DNA of 64,000 nt from Haloarcula vallismortis ATCC 29715 (GTDB taxonomy: Archaea > Halobacteriota > Halobacteria > Halobacteriales > Haloarculaceae): positions 57,886-121,885 of the forward strand of contig NZ_AOLQ01000040.1 of NCBI RefSeq assembly GCF_000337775.1. Reading direction: 5' to 3'. Positions 17,101-24,487 of this stretch are shown piece after piece. Under the pieces are notes generated by a model. The model worked only from the letters and a program-made list of their open reading frames with translations. It did no database searches and was not told the origin of the DNA. The position numbers and the translations under genes are program-made. The first letter of the stretch is position 1. Each line of letters begins with the position of its first letter.

Positions 17101-17597
17101 GCGACCAGAGCACAGTGTTCACGCGGCTCCCCGAAACGGACGACGAGCGCGAGGACCCCGAGCGAGCGACCCGCGAGGAAGTACTCGACTTCTGGACCGA
17201 GCGATTCGGCGTCCCGCCGGAGACCTTCGACGGGTACACGTTCTGGGAGCGCGGCGCTGGCAAACTGTGGCTGTATCAGGGCAGCCCTCCCTCGCCTGTC
17301 GACATTGAAGGGCTGGGCATGACGGTCCTGCGGACGCGCCAGGAACACTGGAAGCCGACGCTTGAGGCCGTCCAGCGGTTCGGCGAGCACGCCTCGAAGA
17401 ACGTCATCCACCTCGACGAGGACGCTGCCCGGGCGTTCGTGGCCGGTGAGGACCAGGAACTCGACTGGGACGGTGACTGGGGCTATCTGGTCGTCACCCA
17501 CGACCTTGCTGGTGAGGCTGAACCGGTCGGCGTCGGCCTGTACGTCTACGGTGAACTCAGGTCACAGGTGCCGAAGGGCCGCCGCCGAGAAGTCTGA
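17097..17597 (+). CDS. PUA-like RNA-binding partner of the NSUN methyltransferase
   Basis: A 166-residue acidic protein. It starts inside the stop of the methyltransferase gene (ATGA), so translation is coupled. In several bacterial and archaeal NSUN enzymes a C-terminal PUA-like domain follows the catalytic domain. The alternation here ('F-W-E-R-G-A-G-K-L-W-L', a hydrophobic strand, then 'L-Y-V-Y-G-E-L-R') fits that domain split off as a separate gene. A role in guiding the methyltransferase to RNA is inference. Confidence 0.65.
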   Translation: MSDQSTVFTRLPETDDEREDPERATREEVLDFWTERFGVPPETFDGYTFWERGAGKLWLYQGSPPSPVDIEGLGMTVLRTRQEHWKPTLEAVQRFGEHASKNVIHLDEDAARAFVAGEDQELDWDGDWGYLVVTHDLAGEAEPVGVGLYVYGELRSQVPKGRRREV

Positions 17598-17630
17598 TTC
17601 GAGCAGTGTGACTGCTCCGGCGAGAGCGGC

Positions 17631-19439
17631 TCAGCCGCTTGAGGACTTTGCGGCCGCCGTACCCTGCATCGCGTACAACTCCGCGTACGTTCCATCGTCG
17701 TCGAGCAGCTCGGCGTGGCTGCCCTGTTCTGTGACCTGCCCGTCCTCGACGGTGTAGATTCGGTCGGCGTTAGAGACGGTCGAGAGCCGGTGGGCGATTG
17801 CGATTACGGTCTGGTCCCGGTCAAGCGTCTCGATGGTTCGATGGATTTGTCGTTCCAGGTTCGAGTCGAGGTTGCTGGTGGCTTCATCGAGCACGAGTAC
17901 TTCAGCATCCATCAGGAGCGCACGGGCCAGCGCGACGCGCTGGCGCTGTCCGCCGGAGAGTTTCACGCCATCGTCGCCAAGCACCGTATCGAGTCCCTGC
18001 GGAAGGTCATCGAGGAATTCGGGGATGTGGGCCTTCTCAGCGACTTCGTACAGCGTCTCGTCGGAGACATCCCCACCAACGGTGAGGTTGTACCGCAAGG
18101 AGTCGTTGAAGATATGTGGGTCCTGTCGGACCATCGCAACAGCGTCACGCCAGTCCGCAAGAGCATAGGTCGAAATCGGCGTTCCGTTCGCCAGAACGTC
18201 ACCGCTATCCGGAGCATAGAGTCGAGTGAGTAGCGAGACGACTGTCGATTTGCCGCCGCCAGACTCGCCGACGATGCCGACGAACTCTCCTCGCTCGACG
18301 GCCATGGAAAAGTCCGTAAGCACTGGCTCGTCCTCGTAGGCGAACGAAACATCCTCGAATGCGATTTCCTCAATTCGGTCCGGAACTGGCTGGCCGTCAG
18401 TTGGCTCCTGTTGGGATTCGAGGTGGTCGATGAACTGGTGCGTTCGAACAAGGTGTGGCAACTCGCCCTCTATAGCGTAGACGGTGGAATTGAGCGAACT
18501 CAACCGGGGCGCGAGTCGGAGCATCACAAACAGGAACACGCCAAGTTCCGCGATGGACAGCGCCCGGAAACTGAGTGCAACGTAGACGAGGCCGAACAGG
18601 AGCAGCGAGACCGAGAGCCGATAGAGGCTTCCGATTGCGACTTGGTTCCGGCGAACGGCGACGCTGGTTACGGTGTATCGGTCGAGTGTGGCCCGGAACT
18701 CGGCGAGCAGTCCGTCACACATCCCGAACAGCTTCACGTCGCGAATACCCTGGGTTCCCGCCTGTGTTGTCTCCTGTAGCTGTTCGTTTGCCGTCGCCAC
18801 ACGGTCGCCAATTGCATACCCGGGCTCAATGCCGTATCTGATGAGCGCCGTAATGCCGCCCAGAGCGACAGCCGCACCGACTGCCAGCATCGGCGCGATA
18901 GCCAGCGCGATTCCGATATACACCAGACAGAGGATACCCTGCTGGAAGAACTGGATGATTCGGCCGATGACACTGCTGGCATACCGGGTCTGTGTCAGAA
19001 TCGTGTTCATGATGTCGTCGGACCCCTTGTCGTCGTAGTAGGCGACCGACGCACCCATTGCCAGTCCGTAGGCCCGGTCTTTGAGGTCGCGTTCGTACGT
19101 CTGGGTAAGCTTCGCCGCAAGCCATTTCACTGTAAACGACATCGTGAACCGGACGACCATCACGCATGCAAGACCAAGGAGCAGGAAGTCGAGCGTAAGC
19201 GGCAAGCCGGCAGCGGCATACGCAGACAGAAACCGGCCGGTGACGCCGCCGGCTTGCAGCGGGGGCCCCTGTCCGGTCTGTGCGGCGTCGAGTATCGGAA
19301 ACAGAAACGAGAGGCCAACCCCCTCCAGTAGCATCACGAATAGGCTGGCGGCGACGATACTCCCCGTCAGCGCCGGACGATAGAGCGCTACGCGGCGCAG
19401 CGATGCGTATTTCTCACTGATGGAGGGAGTCCCGGCCAT
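17631..19439 (-). CDS. ABC exporter (fused membrane and ATPase domains), RiPP locus
   Basis: A 602-residue type-IV ABC exporter half-transporter. About six transmembrane helices lie in residues 20-310. The nucleotide-binding domain follows, with Walker A GESGGGKST near 390-398, signature LSGGQRQRVALARAL near 493, and Walker B 'VLVLDEATSNLD'. The ATG at 19439 gives a short cytoplasmic lead. It is divergently transcribed from the PqqD-like gene with 149 bp between starts, and the last of the RiPP genes lies to the other side. In lasso-peptide clusters the D protein of this type exports the mature peptide and confers immunity; that role is inferred from context. No peptidase domain is present. 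Confidence 0.88.
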   Translation of the reverse strand: MAGTPSISEKYASLRRVALYRPALTGSIVAASLFVMLLEGVGLSFLFPILDAAQTGQGPPLQAGGVTGRFLSAYAAAGLPLTLDFLLLGLACVMVVRFTMSFTVKWLAAKLTQTYERDLKDRAYGLAMGASVAYYDDKGSDDIMNTILTQTRYASSVIGRIIQFFQQGILCLVYIGIALAIAPMLAVGAAVALGGITALIRYGIEPGYAIGDRVATANEQLQETTQAGTQGIRDVKLFGMCDGLLAEFRATLDRYTVTSVAVRRNQVAIGSLYRLSVSLLLFGLVYVALSFRALSIAELGVFLFVMLRLAPRLSSLNSTVYAIEGELPHLVRTHQFIDHLESQQEPTDGQPVPDRIEEIAFEDVSFAYEDEPVLTDFSMAVERGEFVGIVGESGGGKSTVVSLLTRLYAPDSGDVLANGTPISTYALADWRDAVAMVRQDPHIFNDSLRYNLTVGGDVSDETLYEVAEKAHIPEFLDDLPQGLDTVLGDDGVKLSGGQRQRVALARALLMDAEVLVLDEATSNLDSNLERQIHRTIETLDRDQTVIAIAHRLSTVSNADRIYTVEDGQVTEQGSHAELLDDDGTYAELYAMQGTAAAKSSSG

Positions 19440-19456
19440 TGTTCCGGATGCGAGCT

Positions 19457-19469
19457 CTATGTAACATAG
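19457..19469. promoter_or_regulatory. Inverted repeat between exporter and RiPP operon
   Basis: CTATG-TAA-CATAG, a perfect 5-bp-arm repeat with a 3-bp centre, just upstream of the exporter start in the divergent promoter region. A second weaker pair (CCGAC and GTCGG) lies about 5 bases beyond. It could bind a regulator that controls both directions. Confidence 0.3.
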
Positions 19470-19587
19470 TTACCGACCCACTACGGTCGGGTAGCTCTGG
19501 AGCGAAGGACGTGTTTACCGGCGGTCAGGGTTGTGATGGCGACGAAAAGGGGCCATAACAATCCGTGTGAGTATCGCCGATGCCCTC

Positions 19588-19884
19588 ATGGTAGCGATAG
19601 ATTCCGGATCGGCTGTCGTCGCGACTGACGACTGTGTCACAACGACAATCGACGGCGAGGTCGTACTGCTCAACAATAAGACAGGACGGTACCAAGGATT
19701 GTTGGGGGCCGGTCCGGATATCTGGGACCTGATTCAGGAACCGACAGAGCCAGCTGACATCGTCTCTGCGCTGGTCGAGGAGTACGATATCGACAGAGAC
19801 CGAGCGGCAAATGACGTGGAGCAGTTTCTGGAAACGCTTGCCGCGGAGCAACTCATCAATGTCGATGCGAGCCCGACTCGGTGA
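19588..19884 (+). CDS. PqqD-family leader-peptide-binding protein (B1/RRE)
   Basis: A 98-residue PqqD-fold protein. It has the family pattern of a beta-hairpin 'T-T-T-I-D-G-E-V-V-L-L-N' followed by 'G-x-x-I-W-D-L-I' and a C-terminal helical pair. In lasso and other RiPP pathways these proteins (B1, RRE) bind the precursor leader and deliver it to the peptidase. The ATG at 19588 is chosen because an AT-rich CATAAC element lies 26-35 bases upstream, fitting a leaderless transcript; an in-frame GTG at 19567 would add seven residues. The next gene overlaps its 3' end. Confidence 0.85.
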   Translation: MVAIDSGSAVVATDDCVTTTIDGEVVLLNNKTGRYQGLLGAGPDIWDLIQEPTEPADIVSALVEEYDIDRDRAANDVEQFLETLAAEQLINVDASPTR

Positions 19885-20302
19885 ATTCAGGGCGTTGTCA
19901 CGGGCGCAGAAACTGTTGCTCTGTGAAGCAATGGCATTGCTGGTTGCGAGCAAGGTACTGCTTGCAGTCGCTGGGCTGGCGGACGCAGAGCGATATTTTG
20001 CCACGGTTTCTCAGCTTCTCCCGTGTCATCGTCAGTCTGGGTCACCAGAGTCAGTACGCTGGGCAGTTCTGACAGCAGGATCGCATCTTCCGGGCACCTA
20101 CGATTGTCTCGACCGAGCACTCACTGGTAGTACACTGCTGGTGGCTAACGGCCTGCCGCATTGTCTTCGCTTCGGCGTGGATACACAATCCAATACCTTC
20201 GAGGCTCACGCTTGGATCGAATCGAACGGTAGGGTCATTATCGGGGGTGTCGATAACTTTGAGCGTTTCCGAACACTCACAGAACGAGAAGTACATGACT
20301 AA
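19859..20302 (+). CDS. Lasso-type B2 leader peptidase (transglutaminase-like, Transglut_core3)
   Basis: A 147-residue protein matching the B2 peptidase of lasso-peptide pathways. The N-terminal helices contain the family's 'L-S-R-A-Q-K-L-L-L-C-E-A'. The catalytic triad is visible as Cys83 in YDCLDRA, His117 in EAHAW, and Asp132 in GGVDNF. B2 proteins cut the leader from the precursor two residues after a conserved Thr. The ATG at 19859 has a CGGAG about 10 bases upstream; a second ATG at 19865 is also possible. It overlaps the PqqD-like gene by 26 bases, so the two are translationally coupled and act together. Confidence 0.87.
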   Translation: MSMRARLGEFRALSRAQKLLLCEAMALLVASKVLLAVAGLADAERYFATVSQLLPCHRQSGSPESVRWAVLTAGSHLPGTYDCLDRALTGSTLLVANGLPHCLRFGVDTQSNTFEAHAWIESNGRVIIGGVDNFERFRTLTEREVHD

Positions 20303-20348
20303 CGGCTAATAAACACGCTATTCTACGAGAATTCAACAGTAATAGATG

Positions 20349-20356
20349 CTATAACA
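20349..20356 (+). promoter_or_regulatory. Possible TATA element for the precursor peptide gene
   Basis: CTATAACA in a locally AT-rich 90-bp gap, about 38-45 bases before the precursor ATG. It would give the small precursor gene its own strong promoter, separate from the B1-B2 transcript. Confidence 0.4.
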
Positions 20357-20393
20357 AATACACGGATATCTGAAAGCAGAGTCGGGGTAACCC

Positions 20394-20492
20394 ATGAAGG
20401 AATACGAAACGCCGTCGGTCGAAACGTACGGAACTGTCGAAGAAAAGACGAACTGGTGGGACCACGACGACGGATACGGGAAGTGGAGCTAA
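20394..20492 (+). CDS. RiPP precursor peptide, lasso-type leader, 32 residues
   Basis: A 32-codon gene below usual length cut-offs. The leader has Tyr4, Pro7, Val9, Gly13 and Thr19, i.e. Y-x2-P-x-V-x3-G-x5-T. This is the lasso leader pattern with the same spacings as in fusilassin/fuscanodin, where Thr is at -2 and the core begins with Trp. By that rule cleavage falls after Asn20, giving the core WWDHDDGYGKWS (12 residues). The core's Asp residues are at 3, 5 and 6. None is at 7-9, where lasso peptides need the ring-closing acid. The C-terminal residue is Ser, the residue phosphorylated by HPr-kinase-like enzymes in paeninodin-type clusters. It sits between the B2 peptidase and the kinase gene, all on the same strand. 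Confidence 0.82.
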   Translation: MKEYETPSVETYGTVEEKTNWWDHDDGYGKWS

Positions 20493-20724
20493 CGTCTACA
20501 GTCGGTTCACGTATCTAACAAATTCCTCTTTTATCCGTCGTTGAAACCTGCACGCTTCAGTGGCTACGTCGCGGCGGTTTCGTAGCTGTGTGTCGAAAGT
20601 AGAGAGTGCATTCTTATCCACCACAGCAGTCAAGCGGTCTGGTATGAACCAGGGGTGTCATGTATGGGGTGTATTTCAGTACGGACGGAATCGACGGACA
20701 ACTACGCAAGGAGGACTCTAAGAG

Positions 20725-21639
20725 ATGGCAACGGCGAACACAGCCACGTACGAGGCCTTCGGGCTGACAGTCCGCTCAGCTTTCGACGTACCGGAACTTC
20801 CGTCCGCTGAGACAGCGCCCGACGGGCAAGTCGACGTCACCATCACTGAAGAACGGATCTCTCGCCCACTGTCGGCTGACCCCGGGTCCACCTTTCACGC
20901 GGTAACCGAGCGCGAATACTATCTGCTATACGATGCAGCAACGGTCAGAATTTGCGACGGCAAGTCCATCGCTGTCGACCCGGCAGCAGATGTCCCCAGT
21001 GAAGTCCTCCGCCACGTGCTGGTCGGCCCAGCGTTGAACCACCTGCTTGATCAACGGGGCTATTTTGTACTGCATGCAAGCACTGTCAGCGTTGACGGGC
21101 GCGCAGTGGCGTTCGTCGGGGCGTCCGGAGCCGGGAAAACGACAACTGCGATGGCCTGCCTGCTTGACGGGCATCGTGTCCTCAGTGACGACGTGGCCGC
21201 GATAGCGCTGGATGATGGGCGACCAGTTGTCCGGAGCGGCTATCCATCAATGAAACTCGATCCGGAGGCAGTTGCGGCGTTTGACCCCCCGGTCGAACCA
21301 CCGGAACAGGTCCACAGCGAGCGCCCTCGACACTTCTACGGGCTCAGACATGACCAGCCCGCAACCCCGGTACCGTTAGCACGCATCTACCTCCTCGAAG
21401 ACGGCGAAACAATCGAAGTGGAATCAGTCAGGCCGAACGAACAGATCATGGCGCTCATAGAGAACACGTACACGCTGGGCGCGCTGGAAGCCGACGGTCA
21501 GGCTGTGTTTAATTTCAGCGCCTGCGGGGAGATCGTCGACACAGCGGAAATAAAACGGCTTCGCCGGCCGCGAAATCTCGATGCGATTCCGGATATCGCA
21601 GCCAAGATTCGGTCTGATATCACGAGCGATTCATGCTGA
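20725..21639 (+). CDS. HPr-kinase-like protein (lasso-tailoring kinase family)
   Basis: A 304-residue protein whose C-terminal half is an HprK-type kinase. The P-loop GASGAGKTT lies near 132-140, followed by 'LSDDVAAI' with the paired aspartates used by HprK. There is no HPr-binding N-terminal domain of the bacterial kind; instead the first 110 residues match the family found in RiPP clusters. Related kinases phosphorylate the C-terminal Ser of lasso precursors (paeninodin, pseudomycoidin). The precursor here ends in Ser. AAGGAGGA nine bases before the ATG gives a strong ribosome site. It overlaps the next gene by seven bases. Confidence 0.85.
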   Translation: MATANTATYEAFGLTVRSAFDVPELPSAETAPDGQVDVTITEERISRPLSADPGSTFHAVTEREYYLLYDAATVRICDGKSIAVDPAADVPSEVLRHVLVGPALNHLLDQRGYFVLHASTVSVDGRAVAFVGASGAGKTTTAMACLLDGHRVLSDDVAAIALDDGRPVVRSGYPSMKLDPEAVAAFDPPVEPPEQVHSERPRHFYGLRHDQPATPVPLARIYLLEDGETIEVESVRPNEQIMALIENTYTLGALEADGQAVFNFSACGEIVDTAEIKRLRRPRNLDAIPDIAAKIRSDITSDSC

Positions 21640-22856
21640 CGGAGGCTGAGCCCGAACTTCAGGTGGTGCTCGACTGCGCTCGGACCGCAATTGTGACCGA
21701 CGCTTCCCCTGACCCTCTCCCGCTGGCTGACACGCCAGACTGGGACCGCGTCGTCGAACTCGCCCGGTATCACGGCGTTGTGCAACTCCTCTATGAAGGG
21801 CTGGAAGCGGTGGCACGCAAGAGCGGTACCGAGTTTGCTGTCCCGAAGACTGTGCTGACGCAACTTAGCAGCATCGTACAGCAAAAACGGATGCAGAATC
21901 TCGCATTCACGACCGAGTTACAGGAGCTACTAGAACGCTTCGAGACCCGCGGTGTGCGCACGCTGCCGTTCAAAGGACCAGTGCTCTCGGCCGCTGCATA
22001 CGACGACGCAACGGTGCGCGAGTACAACGACTTGGATCTGCTCGTCCATCCGGAAGATATCACTGTTGCCGCGGACATCCTGGAAGAGCGAGGATACGAG
22101 TGGCGCAGGGGGATGCCGCGGTTGGACGACGCAGCGCTGTTAGGCGGTCCTGTGACGAAGGCAATCGTTCACGAGTACGAGATGCGAGGGCCGGAGTTCG
22201 ACGTGGAGCTCCGCTGGCGGGTTGGGGACGCCGAGCGCCCATTTTCCACGCCGTTCAGTGAGCTCTGGGACCGCCGAGACACCGTAGCGGTCGGCGGCCA
22301 ACCGCTCCCGGCGCTTGCAGAGCCGGACCGGCTACTCGTGCTGGCGTTCCACGGAACCAAGCACCGTTGGTATCTCCTGAAATGGCTCTGTGACTTCGTT
22401 GCGGCACTGGAGGCGACAGAAACCGACTGGCGACATGTGCTCGCACGGGCGCGAGAAACTGGTGTCGAGCGGAATCTACTGCTCGGGGCCGAACTCGCCC
22501 GAAATGTCTTCGAGTATGCCCTCCCAGCCCCGATACTGGACCGTCTGCGTATGGACGGCCGTGTTTCCGAATTGGGCGAGGCTGTCGTCGAGTCGCTGGC
22601 TGCTGGGACGCCACAGGCGCCCACGCAGTTCGAGGTTGCTCGGTTTCATGTCGCCGCCAGCGATTCGATAACTACGCTGGTGCCGCTCGTGCTATTACAT
22701 TCCTCGCTTCACCCGACGTACTCAGAGTACCAGTTTTGCCCACTCCCCGGGCCGCTACATCTGCTGTACTACGCCATCTGGCCGCTTCGACTTCTCGTCG
22801 AAACGCCACAGTGGCAACGCCAGCGGTCCGAGGGGGCGCTCGACGAGACGACCTGA
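21633..22856 (+). CDS. Nucleotidyltransferase-like protein (PF14907 type), RiPP tailoring
   Basis: A 407-residue protein. The nucleotidyltransferase core near 105-135 shows 'LPFKGPVLSAAAY' followed by 'YNDLDLLVHPED', where the Asp-x-Asp pair would bind metal. Members of this family accompany HPr-kinase-like genes in lasso clusters, and in the pseudomycoidin pathway the homologue extends the phosphorylated C terminus. The C-terminal half is helical and family-specific. The start overlaps the kinase gene by seven bases. It is the last gene of the RiPP operon; a convergent nuclease gene ends 62 bp downstream. Confidence 0.85.
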   Translation: MLTEAEPELQVVLDCARTAIVTDASPDPLPLADTPDWDRVVELARYHGVVQLLYEGLEAVARKSGTEFAVPKTVLTQLSSIVQQKRMQNLAFTTELQELLERFETRGVRTLPFKGPVLSAAAYDDATVREYNDLDLLVHPEDITVAADILEERGYEWRRGMPRLDDAALLGGPVTKAIVHEYEMRGPEFDVELRWRVGDAERPFSTPFSELWDRRDTVAVGGQPLPALAEPDRLLVLAFHGTKHRWYLLKWLCDFVAALEATETDWRHVLARARETGVERNLLLGAELARNVFEYALPAPILDRLRMDGRVSELGEAVVESLAAGTPQAPTQFEVARFHVAASDSITTLVPLVLLHSSLHPTYSEYQFCPLPGPLHLLYYAIWPLRLLVETPQWQRQRSEGALDETT

Positions 22857-22918
22857 GCGCTGACTTGCTCGCTTCATTCCGGCGGGACGCTGAGTTTCAG
22901 CGATGTCCCACAGGCGAC

Positions 22919-24487
22919 TCACTCTCGCGGTTCGATAGTCCCGTTTCCCAGCCCTTCCCAGACAACCCGATAGCCCAGTCGTGCGAGGGCGGCGCTGTCG
23001 TCCTCGATTCCGTGGGCATCCAGTCGCTCGCTCGCCGTCTCGTAGGCCATGCCGGGCTCGATCTGCTCGGCCAGCTCGTCCAGCACGGCAGGGTCGACGA
23101 GTGTGCGGCCGACCAGTTCGTGACCCGGAAAAACCACGTCCTCCAGCGCATCCTCGCTGACGCCGTACGCCACAGCGAGGTCGGCAAGCGAGATGACAGC
23201 GTCGTCCGGTCGGAGTTCGTCGGGTATCTCTGCGGCACTCTCCCGCACCAGCCGTTCCTCGTAGGGCCGCAGCGCGTCCCGGACGTCCTTCACGCTAACC
23301 GTCCCGGTGTAGGGAATCGCCCTGTTATCCGTCGCTTCGATTTTCTCTCCGACGCCGAGTGACTCGTCGACGGCGACCAGCATCTCCACGTCCTCCAGTG
23401 CGTCAAGGCGAGCAAGTTTCTTCTCGACGTACTCCGGCGTCCAGAAGCCCATAATCTCGAAGAAGACGCGGAACGGTGCGTCGCCGTCGGTCCCATCTGG
23501 CTCCTCTCCACCCGTATCCCGTACCCCGGTGTCCGCGCCAGGTCGCCACTCGAAGGCGAAATCCGGAATGACGACGTGTTCGCCCGCCGCCAGCGGCTCG
23601 GGTTCGCGGAGCAGGTCCCAGTCGAGGTCCAGCGCCCCGAACCGGCCGGCGAAGTCGGCCTCGACGCCGCTGTCATAGCTGACCGCCGTGACGGGCTCGA
23701 CGCCGGGCACGGAAACATCTCCGTCCGAGAGGGTGAGTTCCCGCTCGGTGCCCCGGTCGTCGATAGTCGCCGTCAGCTCCCACTCGCTCGCGGCCGCGAC
23801 CGTCCGAAGGAGGCGAGCGAAGCGAGTGCCGTACCGTCGGGTGTTCGAGAACAGCGCGTCCGGCCCCGTGACGACGACCTCACGTCCGTTCTCAGTCCGG
23901 CGAATTTCGTACATCAGCCGGAGGCGCTTGACCGCCGAGACGAGCGCCTTCGGGTCGGAGGAGCGGACACGTACCTCGGTCGCGTCGAACAGCGCCGTCT
24001 GCGCCAGCGAGAGGTTGTACTGGGCTCGCAGTTCGGCCGGTCCCCAGCGGGAGTCGACAGCGGTGAGAATCTGGCGCGAGTCCCGGTCAGCGTACAGCGC
24101 GTCGGCCAGCGTCGCGGCGTCCGTGCCGAAGTGGGCGGCTGCCTCGGCAAGCACCTGTTCGCGCTCGACCTCGGTCACGACGCCGATGTCCGCCGCGGTC
24201 TCGAACACCCGACGACGGGCTCGAACGGGGTCAACAGGAGCCTGCGTCTCGAACGTGGCTTCTCGCTCGACGAGCTTCGCCAGCCCGCGGACGAGCTTGA
24301 AATCGTCGGCCTCTCGCTCTATGTCTGTGAGTGCGGCCTCCAGCGTCTCGCGGGACTCGCCGACGTGGCCCTGATAGATGCCGAGGACGCGGGCCGCCAG
24401 TCGCTCCGCGTCGGCGTCGGCGAACTGCAGGTGATAGCCGCCGCCCGCCCGAGACACCCGCAGGAGGTCTTTCGTCAGCACACGCAT
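22919..24487 (-). CDS. bax1: Bax1-type nuclease (DUF790), partner of XPB helicase
   Basis: A 522-residue DUF790 protein. The C-terminal half contains a nuclease core with 'VIPDFAFEW', then 'FFEIMGFWTPEYVEKKLARL' and 'LVAVDESL', the spaced Asp, Glu and Lys residues expected of an archaeal Holliday-junction-resolvase-like fold. Bax1 binds and stimulates archaeal XPB and cuts DNA near its bubble edge in a repair function analogous to eukaryotic nucleotide excision repair. The partner helicase gene lies immediately upstream on the same strand. Confidence 0.9.
   Translation of the reverse strand: MRVLTKDLLRVSRAGGGYHLQFADADAERLAARVLGIYQGHVGESRETLEAALTDIEREADDFKLVRGLAKLVEREATFETQAPVDPVRARRRVFETAADIGVVTEVEREQVLAEAAAHFGTDAATLADALYADRDSRQILTAVDSRWGPAELRAQYNLSLAQTALFDATEVRVRSSDPKALVSAVKRLRLMYEIRRTENGREVVVTGPDALFSNTRRYGTRFARLLRTVAAASEWELTATIDDRGTERELTLSDGDVSVPGVEPVTAVSYDSGVEADFAGRFGALDLDWDLLREPEPLAAGEHVVIPDFAFEWRPGADTGVRDTGGEEPDGTDGDAPFRVFFEIMGFWTPEYVEKKLARLDALEDVEMLVAVDESLGVGEKIEATDNRAIPYTGTVSVKDVRDALRPYEERLVRESAAEIPDELRPDDAVISLADLAVAYGVSEDALEDVVFPGHELVGRTLVDPAVLDELAEQIEPGMAYETASERLDAHGIEDDSAALARLGYRVVWEGLGNGTIEPRE

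What the first reader, a model, noticed from the sequence alone, without database searches (positions are those of the whole stretch)
17631..22856. Lasso-like RiPP locus in a haloarchaeon without a cyclase gene
Six genes form a locus: ABC exporter, PqqD-type leader binder, B2-type Cys-His-Asp leader peptidase, 32-residue precursor, HPr-kinase-like protein and PF14907-type nucleotidyltransferase. This is the gene set of kinase-bearing lasso clusters (paeninodin, pseudomycoidin), but the asparagine-synthetase-like cyclase that defines lasso biosynthesis is absent from the locus. No reading in either strand of 17.6-22.9 kb has its length or motifs. The retained genes would cut, modify and export a peptide but not thread it. 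This may be a distinct RiPP class derived from lasso pathways.
Basis: partly seen in the sequence, partly recalled or inferred. Interest (0 to 1): 0.93.

Follow-up and report, generated by a model that had tools for sequence, protein, structure and literature searches.

The report
Lasso-peptide cassette without its knot-maker
In several salt-loving archaea a compact set of six genes resembles the machinery for knotted "lasso" peptides, but no gene in those genomes passes the standard test for the knot-tying enzyme, so the set likely makes a short, straight peptide that is predicted to be chemically tagged, cut and exported instead.

Summary
Window 17631-22856 encodes a lasso-type exporter (D), PqqD-like B1, B2 peptidase, 32-residue precursor (A), HprK-like kinase (K) and PF14907 nucleotidyltransferase (NT), and no cyclase. 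Of 391 Halobacteria genomes, 31 pass the B2 cut-off. Fifteen of these have a cyclase over cut-off, always beside B2; the other 376 genomes have none. Fifteen B2 genomes (16 loci; window and 10 congeners included) lack one; G002 was set aside. Scored in full, these 15 and two later finds have no cyclase over cut-off, and four of the 17 no match at all. Cyclase-free kinases form one clade (100/97) among lasso kinases, L052 excepted. Three congeners have clean empty sites, so the unit is a 5.3-kb cassette. Median dN/dS is 0.16-0.22, and the precursor is identical in 9 of 11 Haloarcula genomes. Cyclase-free cores average 12.8 residues against 25.6, and the window's core has no Asp/Glu at ring positions 7-9. 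Eight of 17 distinct cores lack Ser/Thr though the kinase motif is intact; 16 of 17 have Tyr. Best reading: a lasso-derived cassette making a short linear peptide, tagged by K/NT, cut by B1/B2, exported by D. The chemistry is untested.

The parts
17631..19439 (-). D: ABC exporter (membrane + ATPase domains; no peptidase domain listed)
   Evidence: PF00664 and PF00005 over cut-off; divergent from the rest
19567..19884 (+). B1: PqqD-like leader-binding protein (RRE), GTG start
   Evidence: PF05402 68 bits vs 23.4; NF033536 E 3e-19, below its cut-off
19865..20302 (+). B2: lasso-type leader peptidase, overlapping B1
   Evidence: NF033537 84.1 bits vs cut-off 33; Cys81 and His115 in 49 of 49 rows
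20394..20492 (+). A: precursor, 32 residues: leader 1-20 with Y4..P7.V9...G13.....T19, predicted core WWDHDDGYGKWS (21-32)
   Evidence: identical protein in 9 of 11 Haloarcula genomes, synonymous-only variation in 7 sense codons; boundary from the rule YxxPxL = -17 to -12 (PMC10368454, passages)
20725..21639 (+). K: HprK/PEPCK-fold kinase with intact His117-Lys138-Asp155-Asp156
   Evidence: TIGR04352 E 1.4e-10, below cut-off; model pLDDT 92.5, PEPCK and HprK as best PDB folds; motif
21633..22856 (+). NT: PF14907 nucleotidyltransferase-fold protein, Asp133-x-Asp135
   Evidence: 216.5 bits vs 31.2; D133, D135 in 36 of 36 rows; fold matches MenT1, LnuA, ANT(2'')-Ia, FKRP
17598..22918 (.). approximate extent of the cassette: absent as a block in three congeners
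   Evidence: blastn of the window to G082, G341, G269: alignment stops at 17597-17599 and resumes at 22918-22923

Best explanation
This is a compact six-gene cassette, likely derived from a lasso-peptide cluster, that carries no cyclase gene and likely makes a short linear peptide rather than a threaded ring. Inferred order of events, by analogy with phosphorylated lasso pathways: B1 binds the YxxPxV leader; K phosphorylates the core of the full-length precursor, most likely at Tyr28 of the Y-G motif (Ser32 at the C-terminus is the alternative); NT adds a sugar or nucleotide to that phosphate; B2 cuts after Asn20; D exports the roughly 12-residue peptide. Shown: the gene set, the absence of a cyclase over cut-off, conservation, clade structure and empty sites. 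Inferred: every chemical step, the modified residue, the linear product and the export substrate.
For: No cyclase over cut-off in the own genome or in 17 cyclase-free genomes with all candidates scored. Of 391 genomes the 15 over cut-off are exactly those with an AsnB-like gene beside B2 (one search scored at most two candidates per genome). G054, G153 and G036 carry the genes and have no cyclase match even at E 0.001 (G440, 87% complete, likewise). For G054 and G153 the only PF00733 matches at E<=1e-10 are the short homologue found in 32 of 32 congeners. Kinases of 12 of 13 cyclase-free rows form one clade, 100/97, with bacterial outgroup; 15 of 16 in the first tree, 99/93; NT 13 of 17, 100/100. 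Empty sites in 3 congeners. Median pairwise dN/dS K 0.16, B2 0.17, NT 0.17, B1 0.22. Cores: mean 12.8 aa vs 25.6; YG in 10 of 17 vs 0 of 36; no Ser/Thr in 8 of 17 vs 0 of 36; Tyr in 16 of 17 vs 20 of 36. The L039 core has no Asp/Glu, so it cannot form a lasso macrolactam. HKDD in 41 of 42 kinases; the exception, L075, is bacterial.
Against: No product has been seen. BsfK, a lasso kinase, phosphorylated Ser3 and S3T but not S3Y of its precursor (PMC10368454, section 23 read), which speaks against Tyr. Nine of 11 Haloarcula genomes, the window included, keep a C-terminal Ser, the site used by PadeK and PsmK (reviews, passages). By my boundary 9 of 17 cyclase-free cores do have Asp/Glu at position 7, 8 or 9 and only 18 of 36 cyclase-bearing cores do, so that test discriminates poorly. 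Distant AsnB-like frames of cyclase length exist in G184, G317, G322 and G390. L089 has a broken asparagine-synthase-type gene in its locus. L052 (G390) does not join the main kinase clade, and in the NT tree L038, L039, L052 and L064 lie outside the main clade.
Confidence: 0.67

Rival explanations
1. It makes a true lasso or macrolactam: a cyclase encoded elsewhere, such as AsnB or a distant AsnB-like protein, closes the ring in trans.
For: The genome holds AsnB (629 aa) and a 365-aa Asn_synthase homologue. G184, G317, G322 and G390 hold distant AsnB-like frames of 600-640 aa (two of G390's score best as asparagine synthase, below cut-off). L089 has an AsnB-type gene, broken, inside its locus.
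Against: G054 and G153 carry the cassette with no match to the cyclase model at E 0.001 and no PF00733 match at E<=1e-10 except the short homologue, which is in 32 of 32 congeners with or without the cassette. The window core has Gly, Tyr, Gly at positions 7-9.
Confidence: 0.08
2. It is a decaying lasso cluster that lost its cyclase and no longer functions.
For: The cassette is patchy: 11 of 32 congeners have the kinase of this type, and three have an empty site.
Against: Median dN/dS 0.16-0.22 in four genes and synonymous-only change in the precursor apart from its last residue; the clade spans four genera in two families; catalytic motifs intact.
Confidence: 0.06
3. The same linear, exported peptide, but K phosphorylates the C-terminal Ser32 as in paeninodin; the strains with Asp there carry a natural stand-in for phospho-Ser.
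For: Ser32 in 9 of 11 Haloarcula genomes; PadeK and PsmK use a C-terminal Ser (reviews); BsfK did not accept Tyr.
Against: Asp in G054 and G184; no Ser/Thr in 8 of 17 distinct cores although their kinases keep the HKDD motif.
Confidence: 0.3
4. K and NT form a different crosslink or ring, for example by activating a carboxylate, so the product is cyclic without a lasso cyclase.
For: The K model resembles PEPCK and HprK and the NT fold is that of adenylyl- and related transferases; several cores are rich in Asp.
Against: K, and often NT, also accompany cyclase genes in lasso clusters, where reviews report phosphorylation and hexose addition.
Confidence: 0.08

Closest known systems
Pseudomycoidin cluster (psm; phosphoglycosylated lasso)
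   Same: Precursor, HprK-like kinase, nucleotidyltransferase-like protein (passages in reviews)
   Different: That cluster makes a lasso; here no cyclase gene is in the cassette and the predicted core is 12 residues
Paeninodin cluster (pade)
   Same: B1/B2, kinase with His-Lys-Asp-Asp motif, C-terminal Ser in the window's precursor (passages; motif)
   Different: No cyclase; the C-terminal residue is Asp in 2 of 11 Haloarcula genomes and is Ser in only 3 of 17 distinct cores of the clade
bsf cluster of Bradymonas sediminis
   Same: B1 stimulates the kinase and helps B2; YxxPxL leader; BsfA ends in Asp (PMC10368454, passages and section 23)
   Different: It is described as a lasso cluster with a Gly1-Asp8 ring; its kinase uses Ser3
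Haloarchaeal lasso clusters (L040-L046, L048, L060, L061, L063, L065-L068, L091, L092, L095-L097)
   Same: B1 and B2, usually K and D, often NT; same leader motif
   Different: Cyclase present; in the 36 precursors counted (L093, L094 and L098 included) cores are twice as long with a G-S motif in 32
RRE-dependent RiPP cluster reported in Haloarcula hispanica Boch-4 (PMC10093198)
   Same: antiSMASH cluster with B1, B2 and a kinase in the same genus (passages); possibly this cassette
   Different: The passages seen do not remark on a missing cyclase, name a precursor or compare relatives; identity with this cassette was not tested

Membership tests
Lasso peptide biosynthesis | ATP-dependent lasso cyclase (C protein) | tested here: not met
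   No NF033535 match over cut-off in the genome nor in 17 cyclase-free genomes, own included
Lasso peptide biosynthesis | B1 (PqqD/RRE) and B2 leader peptidase | tested here: met
   PF05402 and NF033537 over cut-off; the lasso-specific PqqD models are below their cut-offs
Lasso peptide biosynthesis | Leader motif YxxPxL with Thr at -2 | tested here: met
   Y4, P7, V9 and T19, with Val for Leu (rule)
Lasso peptide biosynthesis | Asp or Glu at core position 7-9 as ring acceptor | tested here: not met
   Window core has Gly7, Tyr8, Gly9. Across the clade 9 of 17 cores have one, and only 18 of 36 cyclase-bearing cores by the same boundary, so this is weak for the group
Lasso peptide biosynthesis | Threaded macrolactam product | not testable with these tools
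   Needs mass spectrometry or NMR
Kinase-bearing (phosphorylated) lasso clusters | HprK-like kinase with His-Lys-Asp-Asp | tested here: met
   H117, K138, D155, D156
Kinase-bearing (phosphorylated) lasso clusters | Conserved C-terminal Ser in the precursor | tested here: inconclusive
   Ser in the window and 8 congeners, Asp in 2; 3 of 17 distinct cores in the clade end in Ser
Pseudomycoidin-type phosphoglycosylated lasso | Nucleotidyltransferase-like tailoring protein | tested here: inconclusive
   NT is PF14907, 216.5 bits; whether PsmN is of the same family was not tested

The most novel reading that the evidence does not exclude
A separate class of ribosomal peptides in archaea: lasso leader machinery re-used, after loss of the cyclase, to make short linear peptides whose kinase and nucleotidyltransferase have shifted from Ser to a conserved Tyr-Gly motif, giving secreted tyrosine-phosphate sugar or nucleotide conjugates.
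Probability: 0.33. Interest if true: 0.86.

Novelty: new variant of a known kind. Interest (0 to 1): 0.72.

Why it matters
The cyclase defines lasso peptides. A conserved, selected clade that keeps the rest of the machinery but not the cyclase, set apart from clusters that have it, suggests that leader removal, phosphorylation and export can work as a pathway of their own. It makes two open questions testable: what the kinase/nucleotidyltransferase pair does when no ring is made, and how one RiPP class can change into another. It also suggests that genome-mining rules calling 'lasso' from B1, B2 and kinase alone would mislabel these loci. A precursor identical in nine Haloarcula genomes of different species would be an unusual archaeal secreted peptide, more like a signal than an arms-race toxin (speculation).

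Tried and rejected
Cyclase hidden in the module: no; the only frames over 400 aa there are D and NT. Cyclase elsewhere: PF00733 matches in the own genome are AsnB, a short homologue and, by my reading of the frames, LarE-like and ArgG-like proteins (the last two names are recalled, not tested). Because one search scored at most two candidates per genome, I repeated it with all candidates scored for 17 genomes; this turned up distant AsnB-like frames in G184, G317, G322 and G390, so the in-trans rival went from 0.07 to 0.08 and the main reading from 0.68 to 0.67. Another shared modifying enzyme: in the six non-Haloarcula loci compared the frames shared with other cyclase-free loci lie opposite the known genes, except two L056 frames that match frames of Haloarcula loci well outside the cassette; these look like shadow frames of a flanking gene and were not followed. 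Ring-acceptor position as a discriminator: weak. Solved relatives by sequence: K matches HprK and PEPCK; NT has only a chance-level hit (E 0.52) and B2 none. G002 was first counted without cyclase and set aside after one search showed a 320-bit hit about 20 kb away. G221 and G203 (sub-cut-off B2 matches) were not followed. Pairwise dN/dS values are not independent of one another. The core counts are not corrected for relatedness; nine identical Haloarcula precursors count once, the three L052 cores are tallied apart, bacterial precursors are left out, and motif hits that I judged to be chance (out of place or without a plausible leader) were dropped before the count. Literature: searches showed no description of a cyclase-free lasso-type cluster in the titles, abstract starts and passages that I saw; the library lacks most subscription journals.
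Full report
What is there. The six genes are at the stated coordinates. On the minus strand D (17631-19439); on the plus strand B1 (19567-19884), B2 (19865-20302, overlapping B1), the precursor A (20394-20492), K (20725-21639) and NT (21633-22856, overlapping K). Family scans: B2 passes the curated NF033537 cut-off (84.1 vs 33 bits), B1 matches lasso PqqD models below their cut-offs and PF05402 above it, NT passes PF14907 by a wide margin, and K matches HprK-type models only below cut-off. The K model (pLDDT 92.5) has PEPCK and HprK as best PDB folds, and the His-Lys-Asp-Asp motif is intact. The NT model (pLDDT 83.5) matches MenT1, LnuA, ANT(2'')-Ia and FKRP, two of them at E<=0.001.

The cyclase is absent, not merely misplaced. 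In the window's genome the best match to the lasso cyclase model is 159.7 bits against a cut-off of 525 and is an AsnB-type protein next to a glycosyltransferase-like frame. In 391 Halobacteria genomes B2 was found in 33, 31 over cut-off. I took 31 further loci from 30 of these genomes; with the window that is 32 loci in 31 genomes. Fifteen have an AsnB-like gene within about 9 kb of B2 and 17 do not. The cyclase model passes its cut-off in 15 of 391 genomes, and these are exactly the genomes of those 15 loci (at most two candidates scored per genome). Of the 16 genomes without, G002 has a 320-bit sub-cut-off hit about 20 kb from its B2 with a kinase and precursor beside it and was set aside. 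That leaves 16 loci in 15 genomes. A kinase search of 146 Haloarculaceae genomes matched 22. Of the seven genomes new to me, five have a cyclase over cut-off, and G436 and G440 do not; these two fall in the cyclase-free kinase clade. L090 (G440) is cut by its contig end, so its B1 and B2 are not seen.

With all candidates scored, 0 of these 17 genomes have a cyclase over cut-off. Eight congeners, the window's genome included, have AsnB-level hits (best 152-186 bits). G436 has 127 bits, from a broken AsnB-type gene inside its locus. G184, G317, G322 and G390 have only weak hits (22-71 bits) to frames of about 600-640 aa. G054, G153, G036 and G440 have no match at E 0.001. Two of G390's frames score best as asparagine synthase, below cut-off, so for G390 (L052) a divergent cyclase is least excluded.

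Could a general enzyme stand in? In cassette-bearing G054 and G153 the only PF00733 matches at E<=1e-10 are the short homologue, and that gene is in 32 of 32 congeners, of which 11 carry the cassette kinase. It is therefore not tied to the cassette.

It is a unit, and it is kept. In congeners G082, G341 and G269 the flanks are 84-91% identical and the alignment breaks at 17597-17599 and resumes at 22918-22923, with a short unaligned stretch between. The cassette is lower in G+C (0.59) than its flanks (0.64). Median pairwise dN/dS among 10 Haloarcula genomes is 0.16 (K), 0.17 (B2), 0.17 (NT) and 0.22 (B1). The precursor protein is identical in 9 of 11 Haloarcula genomes; among 10 of them seven sense codons vary, all synonymously, apart from the last residue (Ser or Asp).

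Where it comes from. In a tree of 45 kinases with eight bacterial rows as outgroup, all eight from loci with an AsnB-like gene, 12 of 13 cyclase-free rows (L089 and L090 counted as such) form one clade (100/97) inside the haloarchaeal kinases; L052 lies apart on a long branch. Five near-identical Haloarcula rows were left out of that tree; the first tree, with them, agrees (15 of 16, 99/93). In the NT tree 13 of 17 rows without an adjacent cyclase form one clade (100/100), while L038, L039, L052 and L064 lie elsewhere. Of 20 loci found in named genomes by the kinase, four are Haloarcula (amylolytica, argentinensis, sebkhae, salina) and 16 bacterial. Of the bacterial ones 10 show both B1 and B2, and all 10 have an AsnB-like gene; L075 (9.9 kb contig) shows B2 and K but neither B1 nor AsnB, L085 has an AsnB-like gene and K but no B1 or B2, and the rest are short contigs. 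One loss of the cyclase explains the main clade; L052 would be a second.

What the precursor says. By the published rule (YxxPxL at -17 to -12, Thr at -2; PMC10368454, passages) the window's core is WWDHDDGYGKWS. Across 17 distinct cores of the main clade the mean length is 12.8 residues (8-18), against 25.6 (15-32) for 36 precursors of cyclase-bearing loci. Y-G occurs in 10 of 17 against 0 of 36, and G-S in 5 of 17 against 32 of 36. No Ser/Thr is found in 8 of 17 against 0 of 36, and Tyr is found in 16 of 17 against 20 of 36. These counts are not corrected for relatedness. The L039 core has no acidic residue. Kinases whose precursors lack any core Ser or Thr (L051, L056, L057, L089, L090) keep the catalytic motif. 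This is why I place the modification on Tyr, but with caution: BsfK did not phosphorylate a Tyr variant of its own precursor, and the window's own core still has a C-terminal Ser.

Mechanism proposed. By analogy with reviews on paeninodin and pseudomycoidin (passages) and the bsf work: leader bound by B1, precursor phosphorylated by K, phosphate decorated by NT, leader cut by B2 after residue 20, product exported by D. Each step is inferred. D shows no peptidase domain, so leader removal would rest on B2.

Standing against known systems. It works like a kinase-bearing lasso pathway up to cyclisation, but fails the defining test of a lasso cluster, so I do not file it as one. A 2023 genome report (PMC10093198, passages) mentions an antiSMASH cluster with B1, B2 and a kinase in Haloarcula hispanica, which may be the same cassette. 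An archaeal RiPP survey names lassopeptides in the one passage seen (PMC12144867). I found no account of the cyclase-free state in searches.

Noticed in passing
L089:5418-7401 (G436): An asparagine-synthase-type gene, broken over two reading frames in this assembly, lies between the precursors and D of a cyclase-free-clade locus.
   Followed up: partly
G184, G317, G322, G390 (L132-L134): Frames of about 600-640 aa with weak similarity to the lasso cyclase model, several per genome in G390, G317 and G322, away from B2; an AsnB-like paralogue family of unknown role.
   Followed up: partly
B2 alignment, position 116 of the window's protein: The residue after the catalytic His is Ala in 17 of 17 haloarchaeal cyclase-free B2 rows and in 11 of 11 bacterial ones, but Ser in 21 of 21 other haloarchaeal rows (20 with a cyclase nearby, plus L064 of G002).
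   Followed up: partly
L038:14729-18429 (G322): Six short precursors with nearly identical leaders and very different cores lie in a row in a cyclase-free locus; the same genome has a second such locus (L039).
   Followed up: partly
L052:9733-11175 (G390): Three precursors, one with 19 glycines in a row in its core; the locus kinase does not join the main clade.
   Followed up: partly
L075 (Planctomycetota contig, 9,882 bases): B2, K and a lasso-like precursor without B1 or an AsnB-like gene on the contig; K reads HKDE instead of HKDD. Possibly a bacterial cyclase-free case or a cut contig.
   Followed up: no
L092, L093 (G396): A genome of the window's own genus carries three cyclase-like genes: two over cut-off in L092 and one below it in L093 (K and a precursor there, no B1 or B2), so both kinds of cluster occur in one genus.
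   Followed up: partly
NT model m932dadb03e15: Its fold matches FKRP, recalled to be a ribitol-phosphate transferase, as well as adenylyltransferases; this might bear on whether PsmN-type proteins move sugars or nucleotides.
   Followed up: no
window 20604-20663: A stretch upstream of K is more conserved among congeners (0.94-0.97) than the bin just before it (0.85); possibly a promoter.
   Followed up: no
L064 and L098 (G002): A lasso-like cluster seems split: B1, B2 and NT about 20 kb from a kinase, a precursor and a sub-cut-off cyclase.
   Followed up: partly
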